From NCBI GenBank assembly GCA_038999265.1, contig JAWAAR010000003.1:1-36757 (forward strand): a stretch of 36,757 bases of DNA. The letters run 5' to 3'. A program made the position numbers and the translations under genes. The notes below the pieces were generated by a model. The model was not told where the DNA came from. It saw nothing but the letters and a program-made list of their open reading frames with translations, and made no database searches. Every line of letters starts with the position of its first letter. The stretch's first letter is position 1. The stretch comes from Candidatus Aenigmatarchaeota archaeon (GTDB lineage: Archaea; Aenigmatarchaeota; Aenigmatarchaeia; CG10238-14). Positions 8,765 through 36,757 of this stretch are shown here, one piece after another.

Positions 8765-9529
8765 TTGACAAGAATAATCGGTGTTGTTTCTGGAAAAGGT
8801 GGTGTCGGCAAGACAACTGTTGTCACAAATTTAGGCACAGTTTTAGCCAAGAGGGGTAATAAGGTCACAGTAGTCGATTGCAATGTAACAACATCGCATC
8901 TCCTCATGCATTTTGGTAGAGTCAGTTATCCAAAGACATTGAATGATGTTTTAAGGGGAACTTCAAGTATAAAAGAAGCGACTTATCTAAGTTACACAGG
9001 TGTAAATGTTGTTCCAGCTTCACTTAATTTGTCTGATTTGATTGGTGTTGACATAACCCTTCTTGGGGAAAAAATAAAGAACCTTTTTGAAGATCAAGAT
9101 TTTGTAATACTCGACGGAGCTCCTGGTTTTGGTAAGGAGGCTGTATCTGGGATGATGGCTTGTTCAGAGGCTATAATGGTATCAACACCTTATCTTCCTG
9201 ATATAACTGACATAGTCCGTGGTAAAGCTTTGCTTCAGGATTTAGGAATAAAAGTTTCTGGTCTGGTATTGAACAAGGTCACGGGAAAAAGTTTTGAGTT
9301 AAAGGAAGAAGAAATATGTGAACTTACTGAGCTTCCGGTGATAGCAAAAATCCCCTTTGATTTCAAGGTCCTTGAAAGCCTTGGGTTGAAGATTCCATTG
9401 ACCTTTTATGATAGAAAATCTAAAGTTGCCCGTGAATTCCACAAGCTCGCATCCTTTATAACTCAAGAAAAATATGAAGATAGAAATATACTCAGTAGGC
9501 TTGGAAAGTTGTTTTCAAAGTGGTCCTAA
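8765..9529 (+). CDS. MinD/ParA-family ATPase
   Basis: A 254-residue P-loop ATPase of the SIMIBI class with the deviant Walker A KGGVGKTT at residues 11-18, a switch II-like LDGAPGFG near residue 120, and a MinD-like overall layout. The aspartate-rich region after strand 2 reads VDCNVTTSH instead of the usual DxDxG, which may affect partner binding. Such proteins position cargo or division machinery, or act in Fe-S carrier assembly; nothing here decides between these. The start is TTG with a GTGAT SD. No ParB-like partner is adjacent. Its stop is 1 nt from the stop of the converging GH57 gene. Confidence 0.85.
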   Translation: MTRIIGVVSGKGGVGKTTVVTNLGTVLAKRGNKVTVVDCNVTTSHLLMHFGRVSYPKTLNDVLRGTSSIKEATYLSYTGVNVVPASLNLSDLIGVDITLLGEKIKNLFEDQDFVILDGAPGFGKEAVSGMMACSEAIMVSTPYLPDITDIVRGKALLQDLGIKVSGLVLNKVTGKSFELKEEEICELTELPVIAKIPFDFKVLESLGLKIPLTFYDRKSKVAREFHKLASFITQEKYEDRNILSRLGKLFSKWS

Positions 9530-11808: not shown

Positions 11809-13623
11809 TTAAACGGCAAGGACTTTTACCTTCTTTCCACCTATTATTGCTTGAACCAATCTTCTTCCTATCTCAGAACTCTTGTTTATCCTTATCTCAT
11901 ATTTTTTACCTATTGTTGCCGAAAGGAGATATTCATCTTCTATATATATATCTGCAGAAGAACTCTTCACATCCTTTCCAAACCTGAACACCAAAGTATT
12001 GCCAATTTCATCAATAGAAAATTCAACTTCCTTTCCCATTGTTGGATATTTTGGTTCAACATCTATGTGTATCCCCAACTCCTCTTCTAATTGGTTAATA
12101 TTGCTTCCACTCTTTCCTATCAATCTTGCTATGCAATTATTGTTAACCTTGACAGATACCCTTTCATCACTTGTAAAAGTGACCTCCGCCTCTGGGTCAT
12201 ATCTCCTTATAACCTGCTTTATTCTCTGGATTGCAAGCTTTCTTATAGCACTCTCTTTTTTGGTATCTTCCTTAATTGGTATGACAACATTTTCCTCTCC
12301 ATAGGTGTATATCTCATATACAAGCTTCCCATTTTCAAAGTCCCTGACCTCCACAACAGGTCTTGTCAAATCACTTTCCGTCATTCCACTTGGGACTTTT
12401 ACTGTTAATGAGAGGTCATAAACATTTTTTATTTCCCCATCCTTGATGAATATCACGGTATCGACAACATGGGGTATCATCCCAAGTTCTATCTTTCCTA
12501 TAAACCTCTGGACAGCGTCTATTGCCTCTGAAGCATGAACAACACCAACCATTCCCACACCCGCCAATCTCATGTCAGCAAATATCTTGAAATGATTGGG
12601 TTGTCTTACCTCATCAAATATTGTATAATCAGGTCTGACTAATAGGAGAATGTCAGCAGTCTTAAAATAGTCTCCCCCTAAAGGTGCATATTGGGTTATT
12701 TCCGGGGGGACTTGTAAATCCCTAGGTGATTCCAAGGTCTTCACTATCTTGCCCTGTGAGTGATAGAATTCTGCCAAACTGGCGGTAAAGGTTGATTTAC
12801 CAGATCCCGGGGGACCTGCGACTAGAATTCCCTCGGCCCTTTCTTTCAATCTTTCCTTGAGTTTTTGAGATAGTTTGTAATCATCCAGTGTGAGTTTTAC
12901 TATGGGTCTGACTATTGTTATCTCAAAGCCGTCAGAAAAAGGTGGTCTTGCTATTGCTATCCTATTGTTTCCCATCTGGATTATAGTTGCGCCTCCCTTT
13001 TCTGCCTCAATAAATGTGTCTTCTGTCTTTCTAGCACTCTCGACAATTTCCTCTATTATTGTATTCATTTGTTCTCTTGTAAGTGGCTTATCGTCTATAA
13101 CTTCCAACTTAAATTTTCCTGGCTTCCCTCTCTTTGCCATTGGTCTGACATTCTCCTTTAGATGAAGGCTCATGGTATCCGGTGTGAAGTATTTTTGAAA
13201 TGTCAGTTCTTTTTTATCTGCATCAGGTGGCATGTATTCTGTTTTCACACCCTCTGCAAGCCCTGTGAGATACTGGACATAATCAGCCGTCAATAAGGTG
13301 GCATCCTCAAACTTTGCGGAATCTCGGATAATTGCATCAAGTCTCCCACCCTTTGCGAGTTTTATTTCTTCAAGTGTTGGTCTCTCACCCGTAAATCTAA
13401 TCTTTATATCCTTGTCCTTTATCAGTTCCCTTATCTGTTTTATCTCTTCCAATCCAACAAAACCCTCATTTCTTCCATGTGAGGCCTGGGCCTGAAGTTC
13501 ATCCAGTGCCGCTATTGGGATTATGATTTCCTTCAACCCTTCCAGTTCTCCAGCCTGTAACATTTTTGTTACTTTCCCGTCTATTATTATGCTTGTATCC
13601 AAACAGATTTTTTCAACCTTCAT
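11809..13623 (-). CDS. PIN domain-VirB11-like ATPase-KH protein (PINA family)
   Basis: A 604-residue three-domain protein. Residues 1-130 form a PIN nuclease-like domain with acidic residues at D9, D96 and D114. Residues 230-410 form a secretion-type (VirB11/PilT) ATPase with Walker A GPPGSGKST (270-278), an acidic pair in FDEVR (337-338) and a conserved histidine region VVHASEA. Residues 480-525 form a KH domain with the GKSG loop. This architecture is typical of archaeal PINA, described in Sulfolobus as a Holliday-junction branch-migration ATPase. The start is the ATG at 13623, preceded by GAGTGAT; an upstream GTG at 13632 lies within that SD. It faces a 38-residue zinc-ribbon gene across a 146-nt gap. 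Confidence 0.88.
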   Translation of the reverse strand: MKVEKICLDTSIIIDGKVTKMLQAGELEGLKEIIIPIAALDELQAQASHGRNEGFVGLEEIKQIRELIKDKDIKIRFTGERPTLEEIKLAKGGRLDAIIRDSAKFEDATLLTADYVQYLTGLAEGVKTEYMPPDADKKELTFQKYFTPDTMSLHLKENVRPMAKRGKPGKFKLEVIDDKPLTREQMNTIIEEIVESARKTEDTFIEAEKGGATIIQMGNNRIAIARPPFSDGFEITIVRPIVKLTLDDYKLSQKLKERLKERAEGILVAGPPGSGKSTFTASLAEFYHSQGKIVKTLESPRDLQVPPEITQYAPLGGDYFKTADILLLVRPDYTIFDEVRQPNHFKIFADMRLAGVGMVGVVHASEAIDAVQRFIGKIELGMIPHVVDTVIFIKDGEIKNVYDLSLTVKVPSGMTESDLTRPVVEVRDFENGKLVYEIYTYGEENVVIPIKEDTKKESAIRKLAIQRIKQVIRRYDPEAEVTFTSDERVSVKVNNNCIARLIGKSGSNINQLEEELGIHIDVEPKYPTMGKEVEFSIDEIGNTLVFRFGKDVKSSSADIYIEDEYLLSATIGKKYEIRINKSSEIGRRLVQAIIGGKKVKVLAV

Positions 13624-13769
13624 TAAAATCACTCTTTAATTAGGAATAAGAAAACTTATAAATGAAGGTCAGTTATTTAAACCATTCTTTGATAAAAAAT
13701 AATTTTTCTGATCTAGGAAGTTGTTAACTTTTTATCTTTTACTATTCATAACCACGATTAAGTGATTAC

Positions 13770-15346: not shown

Positions 15347-16442
15347 GTCCCGTTGTATAACTTCTATAAAATAGAAATCTAAATATATACCAGGTGATAT
15401 CAATGCATGGTAAAAGAAGACATTCTATGACTGGAAAATCTATAATAGAGAACTGGTTGATAGGGGAAAAAACTAACTGAAAGAACTGTTTCCATCAAAA
15501 ATCATGTTTCAAATTTTTGGGAAGAAGAACTTCTTAGGATGAACGAAGGAAAAGAGGGTCCAGGTACAAATACCCTGATTCTCAAATAATTTTCTTCTCC
15601 CTTCTTAGATCAGCCTTCATTGTTAATTCATATAGAAATCTTCAGGGTTTGGGTTTCCTTTTCTTTGAAAAAGTTCCCGATTACGCCGAAATAAACAGGA
15701 GAATAAGAAAACTTAACCTGGATGTCCTAAGGAAAATAAATAAGGAGGTTACAAGAGCCAAAACAAAAGGGAGGATCATAGATATAACACTAGATGGAAC
15801 AGGTGTTCAAATAAATGGGAAATATGTTTGGATTGACAAGAAAGCCAAGAAGATTAGAAAAAGGGATTGGAAGAAAGTAAACATAGCAATAGATGTTGAA
15901 ACAAGGCAGATTCTTGGTATAAAAGTTCTTGAAAAGAATGAAAATGAAGGATGTCATAAAAATACAGTCGATTTGTTGGTTGATACTTTTGACAATATTG
16001 ACGAAACTGCAGAAATAAGGAGGCTTTATGGTGATGGTGGATATGACAATGAAAACAATTTCAGGATGCTTGAATTCTTGGGTATAGAGCCTGTTATAAG
16101 AGTAAGAAGAACCTCAAGAATCAAGGCAAACTATATGTCTAAATCACTTAAAACAAAAAAGAAAAGAAAATTCTTTGAAAATAAGAGAAACAAAGTAGCC
16201 TTGGAACAGTTTGATTGGGAGAAGTATATAGGGAATAGTAGATATGGCAAAAGGAGTGGAATAGAGGGTATTATAGGCTCATTTAAACGATTTTTTAGGG
16301 GAAAATATATTTTCAAGATCAAATGAGATGATTGAAAGGGAAATTTTTACAAAAGTCTGATATGGAATATGATGGTTGATTGAGAAGTATTGTAATTGAT
16401 TAGTGGGAATAAGGTTGTTTTTCCTCAGTTATTCAACAATAC
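15347..16442 (+). mobile_element. Degraded IS5-like insertion sequence
   Basis: About 1.1 kb with imperfect terminal inverted repeats: GTCCCGTTGTATAAC at 15347-15361, and the complement of 16428-16442 (GTATTGTTGAATAAC), identical at 11 of 15 positions. It is flanked by 9-bp direct repeats and carries one DDE transposase gene broken by several frameshifts. The transposase begins after a good SD (AGGTGAT, 15392-15398). The element is probably no longer autonomous. I infer the family from the transposase and do not claim a specific named IS. Confidence 0.75.
15403..16383 (+). pseudogene. IS5-like DDE transposase, multiply frameshifted
   Basis: Joined across frames, the product is a DDE transposase. 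An N-terminal part (around FYDWKIYNRELVDRG, then VSNFWEEELLRMNE, then KYPDSQIIFFSLLRSAF) precedes a catalytic core that is open from 15538 to 16326. The core has ITLDGTG (first D), LYGDGGYDN (second D) and GKRSGIEGIIGSFKRFF (E), so the triad itself is intact. I infer frameshifts near 15420, 15465 (in a GGGGAAAAAA run), 15548, 16300 and 16345; the original C-terminus (around FSRSNEMIEREIF, then KSLIWNMM) is recovered only by changing frame, ending at the TGA 16381-16383. Five indels argue for decay, not a programmed shift. Confidence 0.8.
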
Positions 16443-16547: not shown

Positions 16548-17954
16548 ATGGGAATTTATAGGACTGTTTGTGGTCTATTAGCTGCTGTTGCTTTTATAAT
16601 GTTGGGTTGTAATGTTTCGGGGGGTATACATCCAACCCCAATTGTAATAAATCCAGAGGATAAATGCGGTTCTATTAGAACAGTCTTATTTGGTCCGGAA
16701 AGCCTCACCCAAAGATTTGTAGATTCGGTTAAGGGTTGTTATAATACAAGGCTTACTTCTTGTCTTGAAGAACCATATTTCCCTTTACCTCCAAACAGAA
16801 GTGATTATTTAGATTGTATGGTGAGATCAGTAAATCCATCTCTTGACGATTTAAATTATTATATTACATTAGGTTTACAAGAGGAATGTATAGGTAAGGA
16901 AGATTTAGAAAGTATAATGAAAATGTTAGAAGAGGCCCCTTTGCCTTCAGATGATAATATTCAATTTTGTAATTTTCTTTATTCCTTAATCCCCGCTCCT
17001 ATTGATCCCTCTCTATTTGTGCGGGCATTAATGGAAGAAAGATACGGTGTACCAGCAAACATTGGTTTTGAAGATGGTTTTTATGCTGTTTTTGGGGCAG
17101 TAACATCATTAGATCTTTTGAGACCAAATTCATTTAATGATTTTATTGCAAATGAATTGAGAAGGGGCAGTGGTTTTTTAAGACTTGAGGACAATCTTTA
17201 TTGGAGTAGTCGTGGGAGTTTAGTTGGGATTATTGGAGGTTCTCCTCCAAGAAAAGTTGAGCTTAATGATGTAATGTTAGACCTACAGCAAAAGCTAGGA
17301 AAAACAGACACATTAATAGTAAACATAGGTCCAGGTATGTATATGGGAGAAATGAATCCAGTTTGGGATTATATACCAAGAGGAACAAGTATGACGGTGG
17401 CTTTTGAACCTAATGCTGTTGTTTTAGATGCACTAAAAAAACGTACTTTTGATCCATTAGTATATGGACCCGAGAATTATTTACTAACTCGTAGGGCTTT
17501 TTCTGCTGAGAGAGTTAGTGTGGACCCAAAAGGTATTGTTGTCTCAGTAAACCCGGTTGGACCAGGTTTAGATGCTTTTTTAGATACTAGAATAGATACC
17601 CCACGTTTAGGTGTTTTAAATACTTCAGCTATACTCGGAACAAGGTCCTCTGGTGAATTTACAGATCCTAGATTTATAAAAGCTGTTGATGACGCGGTAA
17701 ATGAAGTAACATCGACTTATGGTGATTTGGGCCCAAACCCCAGAAGAGCAATAATCGAAAACTCATTATATTCATCAGATTTCAATCGTTTATTTGCAAA
17801 AGAATTAGGAGAAATCTACCAACAAGAAGGTTTTGATTTCTATTTACGATTTCTATATCCTGGAGAAGCAGTAGATCGTTGGGGACCATCACCATATAAT
17901 TTAAAATTTCAAAACAGCCCTTCCCAGTTTGAAATTTTTCTTAGGAGGCGATAA
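16548..17954 (+). CDS. Secreted lipoprotein-like protein with a methyltransferase-like segment
   Basis: 468 residues. The N-terminus has a short positive region, a hydrophobic stretch and LGC-NVSGG, a lipobox with C21 as the possible lipidated residue. Cysteines at 40, 64, 72, 90, 114 and 141 could form disulfides in an extracellular N-terminal half. Residues 256-300 read LIVNIGPGMY ... MTVAFEPNAVVLDAL, which resembles motif I and the following acidic strand of Rossmann-fold SAM methyltransferases; a secreted methyltransferase would be odd, so this may be a repurposed fold. About nine arginines use CGN codons, more than in neighbouring genes, which mostly use AGA/AGG. It lies between two decayed transposase genes. 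I do not recognise the family; transfer from elsewhere is likely. Confidence 0.7.
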   Translation: MGIYRTVCGLLAAVAFIMLGCNVSGGIHPTPIVINPEDKCGSIRTVLFGPESLTQRFVDSVKGCYNTRLTSCLEEPYFPLPPNRSDYLDCMVRSVNPSLDDLNYYITLGLQEECIGKEDLESIMKMLEEAPLPSDDNIQFCNFLYSLIPAPIDPSLFVRALMEERYGVPANIGFEDGFYAVFGAVTSLDLLRPNSFNDFIANELRRGSGFLRLEDNLYWSSRGSLVGIIGGSPPRKVELNDVMLDLQQKLGKTDTLIVNIGPGMYMGEMNPVWDYIPRGTSMTVAFEPNAVVLDALKKRTFDPLVYGPENYLLTRRAFSAERVSVDPKGIVVSVNPVGPGLDAFLDTRIDTPRLGVLNTSAILGTRSSGEFTDPRFIKAVDDAVNEVTSTYGDLGPNPRRAIIENSLYSSDFNRLFAKELGEIYQQEGFDFYLRFLYPGEAVDRWGPSPYNLKFQNSPSQFEIFLRRR

Positions 17955-29223: not shown

Positions 29224-29607
29224 TTAATTATGGATGGTTGCCGTGTCTGTATGTCCTCCTAAACCACCAGTCACATTGTAGGTTATTGTTATTTGCACAT
29301 TACCAGTAGTAGATATTCCTGTAATTTCTATGTCTTGACCTGGTTGGAAAACTTCACCTACAACACCTGCACCAGAGCCACCTGTTAGACCTGTAATTCC
29401 AATCTCTTGAGCTCCATTTCTTATTTTCAAAGTTCCAGCACTGTAGTCAACAAAGGCAAAGTTACTGAAACATGGACTACATTTCACTGATCCTTTTGTC
29501 TTGAAGACTCCCATTGCAAAGAGGGCCCCTACAACCACTATTATAATTAATATGGCCCATCCATATGTCATCAGATATTCCATTGCAGCTTGTCCTTTCT
29601 TTCTCAT
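29224..29607 (-). CDS. Archaeal type IV pilin (major-type)
   Basis: 127 residues. The class III signal peptide reads MRKKG then QAAMEYLMTYGWAIL; prepilin peptidase would cut after the glycine, leaving glutamate at +5. A hydrophobic helix (WAILIIIVVVGALFAMGVF) builds the filament core. A short CxxC (KCSPC) follows, then a glycine/threonine-rich beta domain. This N-terminus is common in DPANN-group pilins. The SD AGAGGTTTT lies 4 nt before ATG 29607. It is the last gene on the same strand as the secretion ATPase and platform genes, after a 47-nt gap, and may be expressed at higher level. Confidence 0.88.
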   Translation of the reverse strand: MRKKGQAAMEYLMTYGWAILIIIVVVGALFAMGVFKTKGSVKCSPCFSNFAFVDYSAGTLKIRNGAQEIGITGLTGGSGAGVVGEVFQPGQDIEITGISTTGNVQITITYNVTGGLGGHTDTATIHN

Positions 29608-29654
29608 CTCAAAACCTCTTACAATACTTTTATTTTCCTTACTAATAAATTTAA

Positions 29655-30677
29655 CTAAACAAAAGCTAACCCAAGTAATTTGCCAACAATTATAGTTGAG
29701 ATAAAGTATAGAACGATACTTATTATTAATATCAATGGTATATATTTTATCCCATCCTTCTCATTCCCACCCGATAAAACACCTATTAACATGGCACTAA
29801 ATATTGAAGTTACTGCAAGTGAAATCAAGGAATATTTGATCAAAAAATTCTTACCTATATTAGACTTACTGATGTCTATCTTGATGAAACTCCCATAACT
29901 CGGGACCTCGCCGATATTTTCAGATATATTCCCCATCATTCCCACAAGATGGGAGGAGATTGAATAAAGAATAGGGGCTGCTATTGCAGAAGCAAAAAAT
30001 ATGAATATGGAATACATCATGACTTGAGCCCTTATTTCCTTTTTTAATAACCTGACTCTGCTTATATCATCTGCAATTCCATCGAGAAGACTTGAAAGGT
30101 TTCCACCTTTTGATATGCTTTCTTTTATTAAATCCACTGTCTTTCTCAAGACATTGGAATTTATATTTTCTGATATTACTTCCAGAGATTCCTGAATTGA
30201 AACACCAGACAAACTTTTTTTGGCAGCCTTCCTTATTTGAACTTCTAAAGGCCCAAACTCCGGTCTGGCCGAGAGCATCAATGCTTTGTCGGTTGTAAGT
30301 CCAGATCTTATATTTGAAGACATTAGTTTCAATGCATCTGGTAAAACTTCCTCTGCAGTTTTAGATCTTTTATCTGCTATCATAACAATAGAATAGTGGA
30401 ATGTTATCTCAAAAAAAACAAAAACACCAAAAGGTATAATTATTTTATTAATCGATGTAAGTTTAGTTAAATTTAGAAAAACAAATGTTATAATCCCGAT
30501 AATAATTCCATAAATTATAAGAAAACCAAAATATATCTCTGGCGAAATTTGTATGTCTGCATATCTGAAATAATCGGAGCAAAATTTCCTGTAAAACTTA
30601 GGCATTCTACCAAAAACAAACCTGTAAACATTTCCTATGAATTTGGTCTCAATTCTTTCAATAAACCTTTCATTCAT
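29655..30677 (-). CDS. Type IV pilus / type II secretion platform protein (TadC/GspF-like)
   Basis: A 340-residue membrane protein with a T2SSF domain: the cytosolic helical core around EEVLPDALKLMSSNIRSGLT and GGNLSSLLDGIADDI. It has two N-terminal transmembrane segments (near 50-100) and three more after residue 220. The N-terminal 50 residues are basic and cytosolic. With its neighbour it forms the inner-membrane platform that the ATPase rotates or pushes. ATGA overlap with the preceding tadB-like gene. Confidence 0.85.
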   Translation of the reverse strand: MNERFIERIETKFIGNVYRFVFGRMPKFYRKFCSDYFRYADIQISPEIYFGFLIIYGIIIGIITFVFLNLTKLTSINKIIIPFGVFVFFEITFHYSIVMIADKRSKTAEEVLPDALKLMSSNIRSGLTTDKALMLSARPEFGPLEVQIRKAAKKSLSGVSIQESLEVISENINSNVLRKTVDLIKESISKGGNLSSLLDGIADDISRVRLLKKEIRAQVMMYSIFIFFASAIAAPILYSISSHLVGMMGNISENIGEVPSYGSFIKIDISKSNIGKNFLIKYSLISLAVTSIFSAMLIGVLSGGNEKDGIKYIPLILIISIVLYFISTIIVGKLLGLAFV

Positions 30678-31564
30678 TCTGTCTGCGGCCTCCTATTTTT
30701 TATAAGACCTATAAACATAAACTGGAAAAATGCGGTAAAAATTAAAATAAACCAGAATATTGATCCAGACAAACTGAAACTTGTGAATGAAGAAATTATC
30801 ATCAGGAAACTTACTCCTAGAGTTGGAAATATAACACTCATCATCATGTACATCATAGCCATTGGGTTTAATTGGGAACCATATCTCCTTATTGAAACCA
30901 TTCTCTCATAAGACAAATCATCAACTATCACTCTTAAAGTTGAGGAAAGATCAGCACCCGATCTCATTGAATTTGTTATTTGCCATATAACCCTTCTGAA
31001 ATAATTTGATGGGTTTTTTATTGCAAGTTCTTCCAAAGCTTCTATTTCCGGTTTTCCTGTTGAAATTTTTTTAATAACTTCCTTAAATTCTTCAGATATT
31101 ACACCATAATCTCCCCTGGATATCGAAACCAAACTATCAAATAAACTAACACCAGAACTCACTTGTATTTCCATATTTCTCAAAGCAAATAAAAGATTTT
31201 TTTCAATTTCCCTTGATTTTCTTGAAATTAACAATTTTGGGTAATATTTTATATAAAAAAAAGTTGAGAAAAATAAAACAATTGGTATTGATATCAAAAA
31301 ATATATTGGAAGAGGCCTGAATCTTGAAACAAAAACCAAAATAAAAAATGTAAATAAAAACCAGAAAAAACCAGAAATGAAAGCGAGAGTGAGATATACC
31401 CTATCATCTACGTCGATATCCGCCATCAAAAGTTCCATCTTTGTTGCCGGATAGATTTTTGATAAGAAATTGCCTATACCTATAAACTTTCTTGAAATCT
31501 TTTCCATTATCTTTGGAGGCATGGGTATTAAAGGTGTCTTTCTCATCAAAAAACCCTTAACCAT
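30674..31564 (-). CDS. Type IV pilus / type II secretion platform protein (TadB/FlaJ-like)
   Basis: 296 residues. Two hydrophobic segments lie around residues 52-110 (AFISGFFWFLFTFFILV; IYFLISIPIVLFFSTFF). A T2SSF domain follows, with NLLFALRNMEIQVSSG and SMRSGADLSSTLRVIVDDL, and C-terminal membrane helices at about 240-290. Start is uncertain: ATG 31564 overlaps the ATPase gene by 19 nt, whereas ATG 31546 (MRKTPLIP) gives a TGATG overlap. Paired with the TadC-like gene, it completes the heterodimeric platform. Confidence 0.85.
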   Translation of the reverse strand: MVKGFLMRKTPLIPMPPKIMEKISRKFIGIGNFLSKIYPATKMELLMADIDVDDRVYLTLAFISGFFWFLFTFFILVFVSRFRPLPIYFLISIPIVLFFSTFFYIKYYPKLLISRKSREIEKNLLFALRNMEIQVSSGVSLFDSLVSISRGDYGVISEEFKEVIKKISTGKPEIEALEELAIKNPSNYFRRVIWQITNSMRSGADLSSTLRVIVDDLSYERMVSIRRYGSQLNPMAMMYMMMSVIFPTLGVSFLMIISSFTSFSLSGSIFWFILIFTAFFQFMFIGLIKNRRPQTE

Positions 31565-33096
31565 TCCTGAGGTATTATAGATTCTGGTTTCTGGTTCTTT
31601 CTAATTAAATCCAAAATCCTATTTCTATCATTATAATACTCTGCGATAACCTTACCCACACCATTAACAGAGTTGATCTTGTTTTTTAAAAGCCAGGAAA
31701 GAATTTTTTTCTTTTCCTCTATATCATTCCTTATTTCATTTAAACTAAACCCAGTAAACATCCTTATTTTTTCAATAAAACCAAAACCCCTTTGAGATTT
31801 CTCTATTTTATCTTTTTTTGGATCCCATCTGGAAATTATTTTAACATCAATTTTTCCGTTTTTCTCATGAAATTCTGCTATCTCATACACCCTCCTAATA
31901 CCCATCCTTCTATCCCTATGCATCACAATTATCAAATTTATTGCCTTTACCAAGGTTTCAGGAACATTTATTGGAGGGTTGATCAATCTCCTGAAAGTTT
32001 CCTCTGCAGTATCTGCATGAAGTGTTGCATAAACACTATGCCCCGTGTGCATAGCTTCAAATAAAACCTCGGCCTGATCTTGCTTCCTTATTTCTCCAAC
32101 TATTATCCTGTCTGGCCTCATTCTAAGGCTGTTAACAAGAAGATTAAGCATGTTCACCTCACCCTTGCCTTCCGGATTAGGTTCCCTAGTTGTTAATGGT
32201 ACCCAGTGGAGAAAGTTTGGCAGAACTATCTCTCTTGTGTCTTCAATACTTATTATCCTTTGGTTTGGAGGAATAAATGGTGTAATGGCATTAAGGAAAC
32301 TTGTCTTTCCACTTCCAGTTCCACCGGAAATTAGCATATTCATCTCATACTGAACTCCCAGCCATATCAGAGCGGCATTCTCTATATCTATGGTCTTGTA
32401 TTCTATAAGATCTGTTATAGTCCATGGGCTTCTCCTAAATAGTCTTATTGTCAGGGTATTGCCTTTTGTTGATATTGGAAAAAGGGTTGCATTGACCCTA
32501 TCACCTGAAATTAGATGAGCGTCCATCAAAGGGTTCAATATACTTATTTGCTTTCCGACCCTTCTACCTATCATTGATGAATAATTTTCTATTTTTGACT
32601 CAGTCTCTATTTTTATATTGGTCTTCAACCAACCGAATTTCCTATGATAAACAAAACAAGGCTCCTCACTATTGTTTATTACTATCTCTTCAAGATTTCC
32701 ATCACCAATTAACATCTCTATTTCCCCTAACCCCAACATTTCCTGTATCAAAAGACCTGAAAGAAATTGCTTCTCATCAACTGATATATTGGGTATATCC
32801 TTTTCGATCATCTCCAATGATTTCAAATAAAATTTTTTCTTTATTTCATTCATCTTCTTTGGATCTAATATGTCAGAGACGCTTAGTTTCATCTCCGAGA
32901 TGAGATTTTCCTTGATCTGTTCCATAAGTATTGAAGTCCCTTTCTCAATCTGAGGAAGTTTAAGATAATAGATAGGAACAAACTCTTCTTTTTTCTTTAT
33001 TATTTTTACTTCCCCTATAACCTTGTCAACCTTTAGTTCATATTGATCTAGAATTTTCTCAGCCTGTTCTAGATGATTTTTCTTTTTATTTCTCAT
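31546..33096 (-). CDS. Type IV pilus assembly / secretion ATPase (TadA/FlaI-like)
   Basis: 516 residues. Walker A is GGTGSGKT (258-265), the acidic box is RIISIEDTREI (280-290), Walker B is around RIIVGEIRKQD (330-340), and the His box is YATLHAD (356-362). The N-terminal 200 residues are the usual N-domain. The last 60 residues include a helix-hairpin-helix-like INSVNGVGKVIAEYYNDR. It drives pilin assembly. The gene overlaps the upstream CBS protein by 4 nt (ATGA) and the platform gene downstream. Confidence 0.92.
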   Translation of the reverse strand: MRNKKKNHLEQAEKILDQYELKVDKVIGEVKIIKKKEEFVPIYYLKLPQIEKGTSILMEQIKENLISEMKLSVSDILDPKKMNEIKKKFYLKSLEMIEKDIPNISVDEKQFLSGLLIQEMLGLGEIEMLIGDGNLEEIVINNSEEPCFVYHRKFGWLKTNIKIETESKIENYSSMIGRRVGKQISILNPLMDAHLISGDRVNATLFPISTKGNTLTIRLFRRSPWTITDLIEYKTIDIENAALIWLGVQYEMNMLISGGTGSGKTSFLNAITPFIPPNQRIISIEDTREIVLPNFLHWVPLTTREPNPEGKGEVNMLNLLVNSLRMRPDRIIVGEIRKQDQAEVLFEAMHTGHSVYATLHADTAEETFRRLINPPINVPETLVKAINLIIVMHRDRRMGIRRVYEIAEFHEKNGKIDVKIISRWDPKKDKIEKSQRGFGFIEKIRMFTGFSLNEIRNDIEEKKKILSWLLKNKINSVNGVGKVIAEYYNDRNRILDLIRKNQKPESIIPQEWLRVF

Positions 33097-33866
33097 TCCT
33101 TCACCTTGAGTATAGGAGAACCAAACATTCCATACTCTATTTTTATCAAACCCTTCTTCTCCAATATTTTTGCCAAATTTTCTATATGATTCTCTTTAAG
33201 GTTCATCTCCTTTGCTATTTGATCAACTGTTACCTGTCTCCTTTTCTCTACTATTTCAAGAAGATAGTCTATTTCACTCTGAATAACCTTATCTGTTGCC
33301 CTATGTATCGAGTCTACAAAGAATTCGGCACTTAGACCCATTACAACATCTTCCATAGTTATAATTCCAACTAGATTTTTTTTACCATCTCTTACCAATA
33401 ATCGATGAACTTTTTTTTCTGCCATCAATTTACTAGCATCCGTCAACTTTTCATCCTGATCTATAAAATAAACATTCTTCGACATAAAATCCTTGACCTT
33501 TATTTTTTGCAACTCGTTTATGTCTATCTCATCACTTTTAGAGTCAAAGAGTTTTTTCTCATACATAAGTTTTATTATATCTGTCTGACTTAATATCCCG
33601 AAAACTTTTCCATTTTTAACAACAGGAGCCCCTGTTATTGCATACTCAGAAAAAAGTTCCAAGGCATATCCAATGTTATCATCTGGGTCCAATGTTTTTA
33701 AATCAGTCGACATTATATCTTTCACAGTTGTTTTTATGACAATTGGAACTTTTTTACTCTTTTCATCAACCAACTTTTGTATTAGAATCTTCTTCCCTTC
33801 TATCATCCTCTCATCAAGAGGCTCCCTATTTCTCCTAAATTTGTCTTTCAAGAGTTTCAATACCAT
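33093..33866 (-). CDS. Tandem CBS domains fused to a winged-helix domain
   Basis: A 257-residue protein. After a charged N-terminal 45 residues, two CBS domains follow at about 45-104 (VKDIMSTDLKTL ... VFGILSQTDIIKLMY) and 121-178 (VKDFMSKNVYFI ... LVGIITMEDVVMGL). CBS pairs commonly bind adenine nucleotides. Residues about 195-257 form a winged helix (QVTVDQIAKEMNLKENHIENLAKILEKKGLIKI), so it may bind DNA, or may act as a protein switch. It is the first gene of the pilus arm and overlaps the ATPase start by four bases, which links it to pilus regulation. Confidence 0.83.
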   Translation of the reverse strand: MVLKLLKDKFRRNREPLDERMIEGKKILIQKLVDEKSKKVPIVIKTTVKDIMSTDLKTLDPDDNIGYALELFSEYAITGAPVVKNGKVFGILSQTDIIKLMYEKKLFDSKSDEIDINELQKIKVKDFMSKNVYFIDQDEKLTDASKLMAEKKVHRLLVRDGKKNLVGIITMEDVVMGLSAEFFVDSIHRATDKVIQSEIDYLLEIVEKRRQVTVDQIAKEMNLKENHIENLAKILEKKGLIKIEYGMFGSPILKVKE

Positions 33867-33930
33867 TCTACCACGTATAAAATTTTCCTATATAATTAAT
33901 TAGTTCTGAAATAATAAAATAATAGGTTAT
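33867..33930. promoter_or_regulatory. Divergent promoter between the two pilus arms
   Basis: Only 64 nt separate the CBS gene (minus) from the first pilin-like gene (plus). Minus-strand TATA-like TTATATAGG lies near 33888. The plus side has AATAATAAAATAATAGG directly upstream of the ATG at 33931. A CBS-wHTH regulator binding here could control both arms. Confidence 0.45.
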
Positions 33931-34338
33931 ATGAAAGCCCAGGTTGCAATTGAATACTTGATAATCGCGAGTATAGGGCTTATTTTGGTATTGATAGGTG
34001 GAAAATATCTTCTTGATGTGTTTCTGGATTATTCAGATCAAAATAGGATATCTATTGCTAAGAACACGGTCAAAAAATTGGGTGAAACAGCGGATTTTGT
34101 ATCATCCCAAGGGCCACCCTCCAAGACAAAAATAAGGATTTTAATTCCAGATGGTGTCCAAAAAATATCTTTTGAAAATAAAACAATAGTTTTAAGTTTG
34201 AAGACAAGGTCTGGAATCAACGACATTTACTACAAAACTAAAACCGAAATCAGAGGAAATTTACCCCTAAAATCAAGTGAATATTACATTTCACTGGAAT
34301 CTAAAGAAAATTATGTCAGCATAAGTGTGGTTGGATGA
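33931..34338 (+). CDS. Class III signal-peptide pilin-like protein
   Basis: 135 residues. MKA then QVAIEYLIIASIGLILVLIG is a very short class III signal peptide with glutamate at +5, followed by the hydrophobic assembly helix. The rest is a beta-rich domain without cysteine. It is the first gene of the plus arm, and its stop overlaps the next start (ATGA, 34335-34338). It may be a minor pilin of the same filament as the minus-arm pilin. Confidence 0.8.
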   Translation: MKAQVAIEYLIIASIGLILVLIGGKYLLDVFLDYSDQNRISIAKNTVKKLGETADFVSSQGPPSKTKIRILIPDGVQKISFENKTIVLSLKTRSGINDIYYKTKTEIRGNLPLKSSEYYISLESKENYVSISVVG

Positions 34339-34721
34339 AGGCCCAAATAAGTACAGAATTTATTGTCTATTTTTTGATAATTCTTTTTTTCGGGGCCTTT
34401 TTTTTGAGTGGCCATCTATCAACCAAAGAAAAATTGTCTTATTTAAAAAATGAAAAAGAAGTTGATGAGTTTTTGGATAGAATAGTTTTTGAGATAAATT
34501 CAGCTACTATTGCTGGAGACGGATATGAAAGGAGATTTTATCTTGAAGACACCTTGGCAGGTTATTCAAATTACAAAATAACTATTCAAAATTATTCTGT
34601 TTTCTTGGATTGGGGAAACCGTTCAAAGTCATCGACAATAATTACCCCATCTGTTAATGGAAGTTTCAAGAAAGGGTGGAACACTATAAGAAATTTAAAT
34701 GGTGTATTATATGTCAACTAA
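34335..34721 (+). CDS. Class III signal-peptide pilin-like protein
   Basis: 128 residues. MKA then QISTEFIVYFLIILFFGAFFL again gives a minimal signal peptide with glutamate at +5 and a hydrophobic helix. A conserved-looking aromatic beta region follows (RFYLEDTLAGYSNYKITIQNYSVFLDWG). Overlaps the previous gene by 4 nt and the next by 11 nt. Confidence 0.8.
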   Translation: MKAQISTEFIVYFLIILFFGAFFLSGHLSTKEKLSYLKNEKEVDEFLDRIVFEINSATIAGDGYERRFYLEDTLAGYSNYKITIQNYSVFLDWGNRSKSSTIITPSVNGSFKKGWNTIRNLNGVLYVN

Positions 34722-35181
34722 GGGTCAAAGTTTATCATATGATTTTCTAACAGCCTTTACCACATTCCTCTTGGTCGTGCTGATAATTTTTGTTTTATTT
34801 GAGTACTCCTCAAATAGTATAAATGATTTTAAAAAAATAGATGAAATTTCAAGAATTTCATCCCAAATATCTGAAGTTTGGATGAGTGAAGGTCTCCCAA
34901 ACAACTGGGACCCGGAAAATGTGATTGAATTGGGGTTATTAAGTAATCAAAGACTTAACCAAACTAAAATTGAATATTTGAATGAGATAGGATATTATAA
35001 GGTCAGAAAATTTGTAGGCTCTGGTGTTTACAATTTTCTTTTAACAATAAGTGATCATGAAAATAATACTATTTTTGAATTTGGTTTCAAACCTGAAAAG
35101 TATGAATTTTCTTCGAAGACAAGAAGAATTTCAGTTCTAGGAAAAAAAATAGTCTATGTGGATACGGTGGTTTGGGGATGA
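34711..35181 (+). CDS. Pilin-like membrane protein
   Basis: 156 residues from ATG 34711. An in-frame start at 34699 would overlap the previous gene further. The N-terminus reads MSTKG then QSLSYDFLTAFTTFLL, which looks like a class III signal peptide but has tyrosine at +5 and aspartate at +6 instead of glutamate at +5. A transmembrane helix and an extracellular domain (residues 45-156) follow. Its TGA overlaps the ATG of the vWA gene. Confidence 0.75.
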   Translation: MSTKGQSLSYDFLTAFTTFLLVVLIIFVLFEYSSNSINDFKKIDEISRISSQISEVWMSEGLPNNWDPENVIELGLLSNQRLNQTKIEYLNEIGYYKVRKFVGSGVYNFLLTISDHENNTIFEFGFKPEKYEFSSKTRRISVLGKKIVYVDTVVWG

Positions 35182-36757
35182 AAAAGGGTTTTGTTTTTAC
35201 CATGGATATACTCCTGGGTATTATTATAAGCATCTCAATACTTTTGACATTTAATTTTATAATAGATGATTTTGAATTAGGTTACCAAGAATATCAAAAT
35301 CTTGCCTATAGATCACAAGATATAATAAACCTCCTCTCTACCCTTAAATTAAACGAGATTGAAGAAAACCCAAAAATAAACAAACTTTTTTCAGAGGGTA
35401 TACTAAAAGAGGAAGATATGGAAAAAAACATCCTTGATATTTCCACCAGTCTTTTTTATTCTGGAAATAAAACACTGGCTTCTGAGGTGATTGGTACCGT
35501 GATCGAAAATGTATCTAAGGATGTTTGTGTCCAAGTCTTAGTTTTTTCTGAATCTATTTATTCTTCATGCAATACTACTGGTGAAGACTATTTTGTTTCA
35601 ACAAAAATAGAAACAGGATATGAGATTGGTAAACCAGTTGAAGGATTTATAGCAAGGGCTTCCATTTCCAGCATATCTGGCAAATATACAAATTCTTATG
35701 TTTATTTTGGTGGTTATGAAGGTGAAGGTAATATAACAAAAATAATTGATCTCCCACCTTTTGTTGAAATATCTGAAGTATACATGGAAGTTGATTCAGG
35801 AAATAATTTCACGCTTTACATAAATGGAAATTTTTCAGGAATTTATAACAAAACTAATAATTTCGAGATGCTTGCTGACAAGTGGATAGTGGACCCAATT
35901 TACTATACAAATTTTATTAAAGGAGAAAATTTGATAAGGTTGAATTTTACAGGGTTGGGTTATATTGGAGGTGGTTTTATAAGGGTCACTTATCAAACAA
36001 AAGAATTATCTCAGGAAGAGTTTGAAAATAAATACTTTTTCCCAGGAATTGAGGGGTTTATAAATGTTTATTCATCATTTTTTGTTCCAGGAAATTTGAA
36101 TGGTCTCTCAGTTCACCTACACTACAAAAGCAATTACACAACTTTCCTGAATATAGCTGGTTTCACAGTCTATAGAAATAATACCACAGAAGAGAATAGA
36201 ATTGATATAGGAAATTCGACAATCTCAACTCTTCTTGATTTTAGAAATCTAAGTGGAAAAACAATACCTGTGAGATTAGGGACAGAAGGTTTCACAACCT
36301 TTTCCTCAGGAAATGCCGATGTTATCCTGATAACAGATTTATCAGGCACGATGGATTGGAGATTGGATAGTGGAGAAACAGGTGTAAGTAGAAGTTGCAC
36401 CGATCCTAATTTGTATAATCCAAGCACAAAAAGGATAAGCCTGGCTAAGTGTTTGGCTATTGATTTTGTTCAACAAATACTTAATACAACCGGGAATAGG
36501 ATTGGATTGGTGGGCTACAGTGGAGTGCCAAACTATTTGTGTTCAGATCCGAGCAACCCAATAAGATCGTATCACAACCTCACAAATAATTCCACTTCAT
36601 TGATATCACAAATAAACACTTACACACCTAGCGGGGCAACAGGTATTTGTGGAGCGATTAGAAAGGCAAGAACAATTCTACATGACCAGAGCAACTCATC
36701 AAGGCAAAAATTTATAATAGTCATGACTGATGGTTTGGCTAATGTTCAATGCGATCC
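35178..36757 (+). CDS. Large surface protein with a vWA domain, 3'-partial
   Basis: Open from ATG 35178 to the window end (526 codons, no stop). The N-terminus MKKGFVFTMDILLGIIIS has a class III-like positive charge and a hydrophobic helix, with aspartate at +6 after the glycine, as in the preceding gene. Residues 40-370 form an extracellular, beta-rich region with many N-x-S/T sequons (for example NTT, NFS, NYT). A vWA domain starts near residue 380: MIDAS D387 in DLSGT, T488 in GATG, D518 in MTDG. vWA domains mediate metal-dependent protein adhesion. The gene overlaps the upstream pilin-like gene by 4 nt, suggesting a pilus-linked adhesin or tip protein. Confidence 0.8.
   Translation, partial: MKKGFVFTMDILLGIIISISILLTFNFIIDDFELGYQEYQNLAYRSQDIINLLSTLKLNEIEENPKINKLFSEGILKEEDMEKNILDISTSLFYSGNKTLASEVIGTVIENVSKDVCVQVLVFSESIYSSCNTTGEDYFVSTKIETGYEIGKPVEGFIARASISSISGKYTNSYVYFGGYEGEGNITKIIDLPPFVEISEVYMEVDSGNNFTLYINGNFSGIYNKTNNFEMLADKWIVDPIYYTNFIKGENLIRLNFTGLGYIGGGFIRVTYQTKELSQEEFENKYFFPGIEGFINVYSSFFVPGNLNGLSVHLHYKSNYTTFLNIAGFTVYRNNTTEENRIDIGNSTISTLLDFRNLSGKTIPVRLGTEGFTTFSSGNADVILITDLSGTMDWRLDSGETGVSRSCTDPNLYNPSTKRISLAKCLAIDFVQQILNTTGNRIGLVGYSGVPNYLCSDPSNPIRSYHNLTNNSTSLISQINTYTPSGATGICGAIRKARTILHDQSNSSRQKFIIVMTDGLANVQCD

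What the first reader, a model, noticed from the sequence alone, without database searches (positions are those of the whole stretch)
29224..36757. Type IV pilus locus with CBS-winged-helix head gene and a vWA surface protein
The minus arm has a CBS-CBS-wHTH protein translationally coupled to the secretion ATPase, two platform proteins and a pilin. The plus arm has three overlapping pilin-like genes and a glycoprotein-like vWA protein whose N-terminus resembles a pilin signal peptide. Together they suggest a nucleotide-sensing, adhesive pilus. In host-dependent small archaea such a system could mediate host attachment; that last step is inference.
Basis: partly seen in the sequence, partly recalled or inferred. 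Interest (0 to 1): 0.75.

Follow-up and report, generated by a model that had tools for sequence, protein, structure and literature searches.

The report
Pilus motor with swappable regulator gene
A tiny archaeon carries genes for a hair-like pilus, and next to the pilus motor gene sits a small dedicated protein whose attached sensor part has been exchanged repeatedly among related archaea, which suggests a plug-in control of the motor that, as far as I could find, nobody has described.

Summary
The locus is real, except that the contig ends inside the vWA gene. Minus arm: CBS-CBS-wHTH, secretion ATPase, two single-domain T2SSF platform proteins, class III-signal pilin. Plus arm: three overlapping pilin-like genes and a vWA protein with a prepilin-like N-terminus.

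What it missed: the conserved element is the winged helix, not the CBS pair. In 83 of 97 loci of this ATPase clade (DPANN archaea) a homologous wHTH gene lies within 200 nt upstream of the ATPase, but its partner is a CBS pair (34), membrane segments (21), coiled coil (16), zinc site (4), MinD ATPase (1) or other (7). Partners were exchanged at least seven times. wHTH and ATPase co-occur across 156 genomes (76 both, 2 and 11 one only, 67 neither). The recognition helix is acidic family-wide, unlike off-locus wHTHs.

Best reading: a dedicated ATPase-docking hub with interchangeable input; here probably an adenine-nucleotide sensor. A transcription factor is the main rival. Host attachment remains inference.

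The parts
33093..33866 (-). Head gene: CBS pair (about residues 45-178) + C-terminal winged helix (about 197-253); the wHTH is the part conserved across the ATPase clade
   Evidence: Pfam CBS 1e-29; wHTH family in 83 of 97 loci; AF2 model pLDDT 76
31546..33096 (-). Pilus assembly (secretion) ATPase of a DPANN clade separate from the second ATPase of the genome
   Evidence: Pfam T2SSE 2e-36; ATPase tree, clade branch support 100
30674..31564 (-). Platform protein 1 (one T2SSF domain)
   Evidence: Pfam 5e-18
29655..30677 (-). Platform protein 2 (one T2SSF domain)
   Evidence: Pfam 2e-15
29224..29607 (-). Pilin, probably major (leader MRKKG^QAAMEYLMTYGWA)
   Evidence: Leader read from sequence; same family at the end of the operon in many relatives
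33867..33930 (.). 64-bp divergent intergenic region between head gene and pil2
33931..34338 (+). pil2, pilin-like (leader MKA^QVAIEY)
   Evidence: Family conserved in the loci
34335..34721 (+). pil3, pilin-like (leader MKA^QISTEF)
34699..35181 (+). pil4, pilin-like (KG^QSLSYDF); related to DUF7287 proteins and to a pilin-like gene of the second pilus locus
35172..36757 (+). Modular vWA protein with prepilin-like N-terminus (KKGFVFTMD), cut by the contig end
   Evidence: Pfam VWA_2 8e-9; MIDAS DLSGT; truncation

Best explanation
This is a type IV pilus machine of the Epd/Tad-like plan (one ATPase, two single-domain platform proteins, QxxxE pilins, a minor-pilin set with a large modular vWA protein). 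The head gene encodes a dedicated pilus component: a winged helix that has most likely become a protein-docking module on the assembly ATPase, carrying an interchangeable input or anchor domain. In this genome the input is a CBS pair, so adenine-nucleotide status (AMP/ADP/ATP or a related ligand) would gate ATPase activity or recruitment. Elsewhere the same slot carries membrane segments, long coiled coils, zinc sites or a MinD-type ATPase, a position comparable to that of TadZ in bacterial Tad. The vWA pilin is presumed to sit at the tip and bind a surface. Shown: gene content, overlaps, conservation, domain exchange, co-occurrence, acidic helix family-wide. Inferred: docking on the ATPase, ligand, gating, tip position, adhesion.
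For: 83 of 97 clade loci have the wHTH gene within 200 nt upstream of the ATPase, 23 with a 4-nt overlap; 10 ATPases of other clades have none. Partner domains differ and need at least 7 changes on the ATPase tree. 76/2/11/67 co-occurrence in 156 genomes. The head stays at the ATPase even where the platform genes are not adjacent (26 loci) or the pilin arm is collinear. Recognition helix -3.2 charges in 71 heads against +2.0 in 9 off-locus wHTHs; Lrp-type relatives have RKR/SYR where this family has EEW. A MinD-wHTH fusion lies in the slot in G026. Both CBS nucleotide motifs are intact.
Against: The wHTH fold is closest to DNA-binding regulators. The window's own recognition helix (ENL) is about neutral, not acidic. 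11 genomes hold the wHTH without this ATPase, and in some it is away from any ATPase or beside the vWA gene. No wHTH-ATPase fusion found. No complex was modelled.
Confidence: 0.5

Rival explanations
1. The head protein is a pilus-specific one-component transcription factor: the CBS pair senses a nucleotide and the wHTH controls the divergent promoter of both arms. Membrane-anchored variants would be membrane-bound regulators like ArnR.
For: wHTH fold nearest to IclR/Lrp; the gene heads one arm with a 64-bp divergent region; membrane-bound HTH regulators of archaella are known (PMC4858521); wHTH copies exist away from the ATPase.
Against: Acidic recognition helix with conserved E-E-W in most members; no palindrome seen; start codons overlap or nearly touch in f12 loci, leaving little room for an operator; the gene sits mid-operon next to the ATPase in collinear loci.
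Confidence: 0.33
2. The vWA protein is not a tip adhesin but a membrane-anchored base component (as once proposed for TadG), or the filament serves DNA uptake or secretion rather than adhesion.
For: TadG vWA proteins were hypothesised to anchor the pilus (PMC4858521); no structural proof of tip location here, since the model failed.
Against: Prepilin-like leader and MIDAS conserved in many relatives; clusters with minor pilins; large modular minor pilins form tips in Tad/Kil (PMC12075869) and carry a vWA adhesin module in S. sanguinis PilB (PMC8179133).
Confidence: 0.25
3. Adjacency is only inherited operon order: the head gene is a housekeeping CBS/wHTH gene that happens to precede the ATPase.
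For: Many loci come from related genomes, so they are not independent.
Against: The partner domain changes repeatedly while wHTH and position stay; mostly one strong copy per genome, present with the ATPase clade and mostly absent without it; contacts are kept while other gene neighbours are reshuffled.
Confidence: 0.05

Closest known systems
EppA-dependent (Epd) pili of Methanococcus/Thermococcus (clade 1 of Makarova 2016, PMC4858521; PMC6668835)
   Same: One ATPase, two single-T2SSF platform proteins, QxxxE class III pilins, several minor pilins, a large adhesin-like protein
   Different: wHTH head gene at the ATPase not described there; vWA protein instead of DUF2341/PilY adhesins; direct ATPase relationship not tested
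Bacterial Tad pilus (TadZ-TadA-TadB-TadC, TadE/F/G) and Myxococcus Kil tips (PMC6668835, PMC12075869)
   Same: ATPase followed by two platform genes; minor-pilin set with a large modular pilin, vWA in TadG; a dedicated gene in the slot before the ATPase
   Different: No secretin; the slot holds a wHTH protein (MinD fusion in one genome only), not TadZ; homology of pil2-4 to TadE/F not shown
Modular vWA pilin PilB of Streptococcus sanguinis (PMC8179133)
   Same: Prepilin-like leader followed by a vWA module with MIDAS
   Different: Archaeal, far larger (877 aa in the intact same-genus orthologue), leader with D at +6; adhesion untested
ArnR/ArnR1 membrane-bound HTH regulators of the archaellum (PMC4858521)
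   Same: HTH protein associated with a type IV filament locus, membrane-anchored like some heads here
   Different: Found at archaellum loci of Crenarchaeota, not fixed at the ATPase; homology not tested; no partner exchange reported
CBS-pair adenine-nucleotide sensors (MJ1225, CBSX2-AMP, AcuB)
   Same: Fold and nucleotide-motif match
   Different: Fused to this wHTH and tied to a pilus ATPase; ligand unknown

Membership tests
Archaeal type IV pilus system | Secretion ATPase plus T2SSF platform | tested here: met
   Pfam T2SSE 2e-36, T2SSF 2e-15 and 5e-18
Archaeal type IV pilus system | Pilins with class III leader | tested here: met
   Leaders read in pilin, pil2, pil3; Pfam Class_IIIsignal weak in 2 of 19 family members
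Archaeal type IV pilus system | Prepilin peptidase in the genome | tested here: met
   Two PF01478 genes
Epd/Tad-like subgroup | Two platform genes with one T2SSF domain each | tested here: met
   criterion from PMC6668835
Epd/Tad-like subgroup | ATPase inside the Epd/Tad clade | not tested
   No Epd reference ATPase at hand; among solved structures the profile ranks A. fulgidus GspE (338 bits) over FlaI (267) and CpaF (232)
Epd/Tad-like subgroup | Second (MinD/TadZ-type) ATPase in the locus | tested here: not met
   Not in the window's pilus locus; only G026 has a MinD-wHTH gene at the ATPase
Modular vWA pilin | Prepilin leader and hydrophobic helix | tested here: inconclusive
   KKGFVFTMD with D at +6 then a hydrophobic stretch, family-wide; structure model failed
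Modular vWA pilin | vWA module with MIDAS | tested here: met
   VWA_2 8e-9; DLSGT and TDG motifs, DxSGS in relatives
Modular vWA pilin | Adhesion | not testable with these tools
   Needs binding experiments
DNA-binding wHTH transcription factor | wHTH fold | tested here: met
   Profile matches IclR/Lrp 5e-5 to 2e-4; model
DNA-binding wHTH transcription factor | Basic or polar recognition helix | tested here: not met
   Family mean charge -3.2 against +2.0 in off-locus controls; the window's own helix is about neutral, so for this member alone inconclusive
DNA-binding wHTH transcription factor | Operator in the promoter region | tested here: inconclusive
   No palindrome seen by eye in the short intergenic regions
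Adenine-nucleotide CBS sensor | CBS pair with G-h-h-[ST]-x-x-D motifs | tested here: met
   GILSQTD and GIITMED
Adenine-nucleotide CBS sensor | Ligand binding | not testable with these tools
   Needs ITC or thermal shift

The most novel reading that the evidence does not exclude
A DPANN-wide pilus family in which a repurposed, non-DNA-binding winged helix is a dedicated docking hub on the assembly ATPase, and evolution plugs different sensor or anchor domains (CBS, membrane segments, coiled coil, zinc site, MinD) into that hub to place the pilus motor under different controls.
Probability: 0.42. Interest if true: 0.75.

Novelty: new variant of a known kind. Interest (0 to 1): 0.58.

Why it matters
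Cultivated DPANN archaea depend on contact with hosts (PMC11291902), but their attachment machinery and its control are barely known. In the comparable ultrasmall Saccharibacteria a type IV pilus contributes to host binding (PMC12206443). This locus gives a concrete candidate: a pilus with a modular vWA protein and a motor tied to a dedicated hub that, in this lineage, may read nucleotide status, a currency such reduced cells may have to obtain from hosts (inference). It makes a direct prediction: the wHTH binds the ATPase, and ligand binding by the CBS pair changes its activity or recruitment.

Tried and rejected
AF2 of the vWA protein gave pLDDT 39 from a 3-row alignment and was not used. 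AF2 of the head protein gave the expected CBS pair plus wHTH; Foldseek hits were dominated by CBS. A conserved palindrome in the divergent region was looked for by eye and not seen. A wHTH-ATPase fusion was looked for and not found. A MinD-wHTH fusion was looked for across 155 genomes; among the listed matches only G026 has it. The missing part of the vWA gene was looked for in the assembly and not found. The idea that CBS defines the head gene was rejected after the survey. The idea that the wHTH occurs only beside this ATPase was rejected: eleven genomes have it without the ATPase. Seven literature searches found no description of this head gene, but most subscription papers and supplementary tables could not be read.
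Full report
OBSERVATION. On the minus strand, in order of transcription: CBS-CBS-wHTH (33093-33866), ATPase (31546-33096), two T2SSF proteins (30674-31564 and 29655-30677) and a pilin (29224-29607). On the plus strand: pil2, pil3, pil4 and the vWA protein, from 33931 to the contig end. Pfam supports each large protein. Junction overlaps are 4, 19 and 4 nt on the minus arm and 4, 23 and 10 nt on the plus arm. The window is the whole contig C3, so the vWA gene is truncated, and the rest is not elsewhere in the assembly. The genome is 0.79 Mb and 97% complete. It has a second ATPase/platform locus and two prepilin peptidases. Named relatives with the ATPase are Woesearchaeota, Pacearchaeota, Micrarchaeota and Ca. 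Iainarchaeum, all DPANN. A vWA gene on a Woesearchaeota contig (L108, itself cut) is 76% identical over the overlapping part, though its head gene is of another type.

In same-family genomes the CBS-wHTH gene lies directly upstream of the ATPase (compare coordinates). The vWA-family gene follows pil4 in most loci where pil2-pil4 are recognised, both divergently (window, L069-L074, L078) and collinearly (L075, L077, L085, L089). The finding passes both tests.

WHAT IS CONSERVED. I collected 97 loci of this ATPase clade, from genomes of the phylum and from named contigs, and searched the upstream gene. In 83 the gene ending within 200 nt upstream on the same strand carries a homologous winged helix; 23 overlap the ATPase by exactly 4 nt. 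Of the other 14, at least two are cut at contig ends close to the ATPase (L082, L096), and four have a wHTH gene elsewhere in the fetched stretch (L111, L115, L222, L227). Ten ATPases of other clades show none. The partner domain differs: CBS pair 34, transmembrane segments 21, long coiled coil 16, zinc-binding motif 4, MinD 1, other 7 (domain checks; the transmembrane, coiled-coil and zinc classes rest on simple rules of my own). On a maximum-likelihood ATPase tree the partner types cluster but need at least seven changes. One Micrarchaeota genome has two ATPase loci with different heads (L105 coiled coil, L291 CBS). In G026 a CBS-wHTH gene is followed by a MinD-wHTH fusion that abuts the ATPase.

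CO-OCCURRENCE. Of 156 genomes, 76 have both the ATPase clade and the wHTH, 2 only the ATPase, 11 only the wHTH, 67 neither (Fisher p 2e-29, which ignores relatedness). Most genomes hold one strong copy. The wHTH-only cases I looked at (for example L311, L312) are coiled-coil or other wHTH proteins away from any ATPase of the clade. They show that the protein can persist without the neighbour, which limits the claim. In named Woesearchaeota and Micrarchaeota genomes a second copy is common, and some of those lie at an ATPase.

DNA BINDER OR DOCKING MODULE? The fold is a normal wHTH by profile, nearest to IclR and Lrp regulators. But the recognition helix carries a conserved E-E-W, and its residues average -3.2 charges in 71 heads against +2.0 in nine off-locus archaeal wHTHs picked up by the same profile. 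At the same positions Lrp-type proteins have RKR or SYR. The most conserved positions are D7 (99%), L42 (98%), T4 (92%), E36 (86%), Y52 (84%), E43 and G56 (83%) and W38 (82%). The window's own helix (ENL) is about neutral, so this argument is statistical for the family and weak for this member alone. The divergent intergenic region is 64 bp here and in most divergent relatives ranges from 77 bp down to a 12-bp overlap (one is 420 bp; one of -35 probably reflects a wrong start codon), without a palindrome seen by eye. The head stays at the ATPase when platform genes are not adjacent (26 loci) and when pilins are collinear. Adjacency of head and ATPase (80 of 92 loci with enough flank) exceeds that of ATPase and platform (62 of 92; divergent platform proteins may be missed by my profiles). 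I therefore prefer an ATPase-docking hub (about 0.5) over a transcription factor (about 0.33); the two are not exclusive.

WHAT THE CBS PAIR MAY DO. Both CBS domains keep G-h-h-[ST]-x-x-D (GILSQTD, GIITMED), conserved in most CBS-type heads but mostly lost in family f12. The model shows a CBS pair joined by a long helix (171-209) to the wHTH (pLDDT 76). Solved neighbours include AMP-, ADP- and ATP-bound CBS pairs. Ligand and effect are inference.

THE vWA PROTEIN. It starts KKGFVFTMD; the family signature is G(F/V/I)xF(T/S)xD followed by a hydrophobic stretch. The window has MIDAS DLSGT and TDG; relatives have DxSGS. Family members in other genomes lack vWA or are short (about 140-180 aa), so vWA is an optional graft, as in bacterial modular pilins (PMC8179133) and Tad/Kil tips (PMC12075869). 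The fold could not be modelled.

KNOWN SYSTEMS. Two single-T2SSF platform genes are the mark of Epd and Tad (PMC6668835). The main text of the 2016 census of archaeal T4P mentions neither CBS nor winged-helix proteins, and says that cognate pilins of a nanoarchaeal ATPase clade could not be identified. A later paper notes that pilus components of some DPANN genomes show no detectable similarity to those of other archaea. Supplementary tables were not read, so the gene may be listed there under an arCOG number. In Tad loci the slot before the ATPase holds TadZ (gene order from general knowledge; TadZ similarity to archaeal MinD-type components); here it holds the wHTH protein. That parallel rests on position and one MinD fusion, not on homology.

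HOST ATTACHMENT. Nothing here tests it. The analogy is Saccharibacteria, where a thin pilus contributes to host binding (PMC12206443).

Noticed in passing
L099:8038-11124 (G035), L114:9995-13072, L116:4892-7165: Pilus ATPase genes of three relatives are interrupted in frame by intein/LAGLIDADG homing-endonuclease sequence (PF14890 3e-29 in L099; PF14528 in all three).
   Followed up: partly
L070:12520-15292, also L071 and L074: Two coiled-coil genes (about 700 and 234 aa) are inserted between the second platform gene and the pilin in one genus (g3).
   Followed up: partly
L069:2183-3427 and equivalents in other loci: A further pilin-like gene (about 270-430 aa, starts RKGV.FS) lies near the end of the vWA arm in relatives; its copy is lost at the contig end here.
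   Followed up: partly
L311:7174-7770, L312:7164-7688 (family f7): Coiled-coil wHTH proteins of the same family in genomes without this ATPase clade; function there unexplained.
   Followed up: partly
L318:6869-7324 (G123): wHTH gene of the family near a vWA-family gene, away from the ATPase locus of the same contig.
   Followed up: partly
window 15649-16326: ORF that looks like an IS5-type transposase by eye.
   Followed up: no
window 16548-17954: Predicted lipoprotein-like secreted protein (signal ending ..AFIMLGC) next to the transposase-like ORF.
   Followed up: no
window 11809-13632 and 8765-9529: PIN-ATPase-KH type protein (T2SSE match) and a MinD-type ATPase on the same contig, not linked to the pilus arms.
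   Followed up: no
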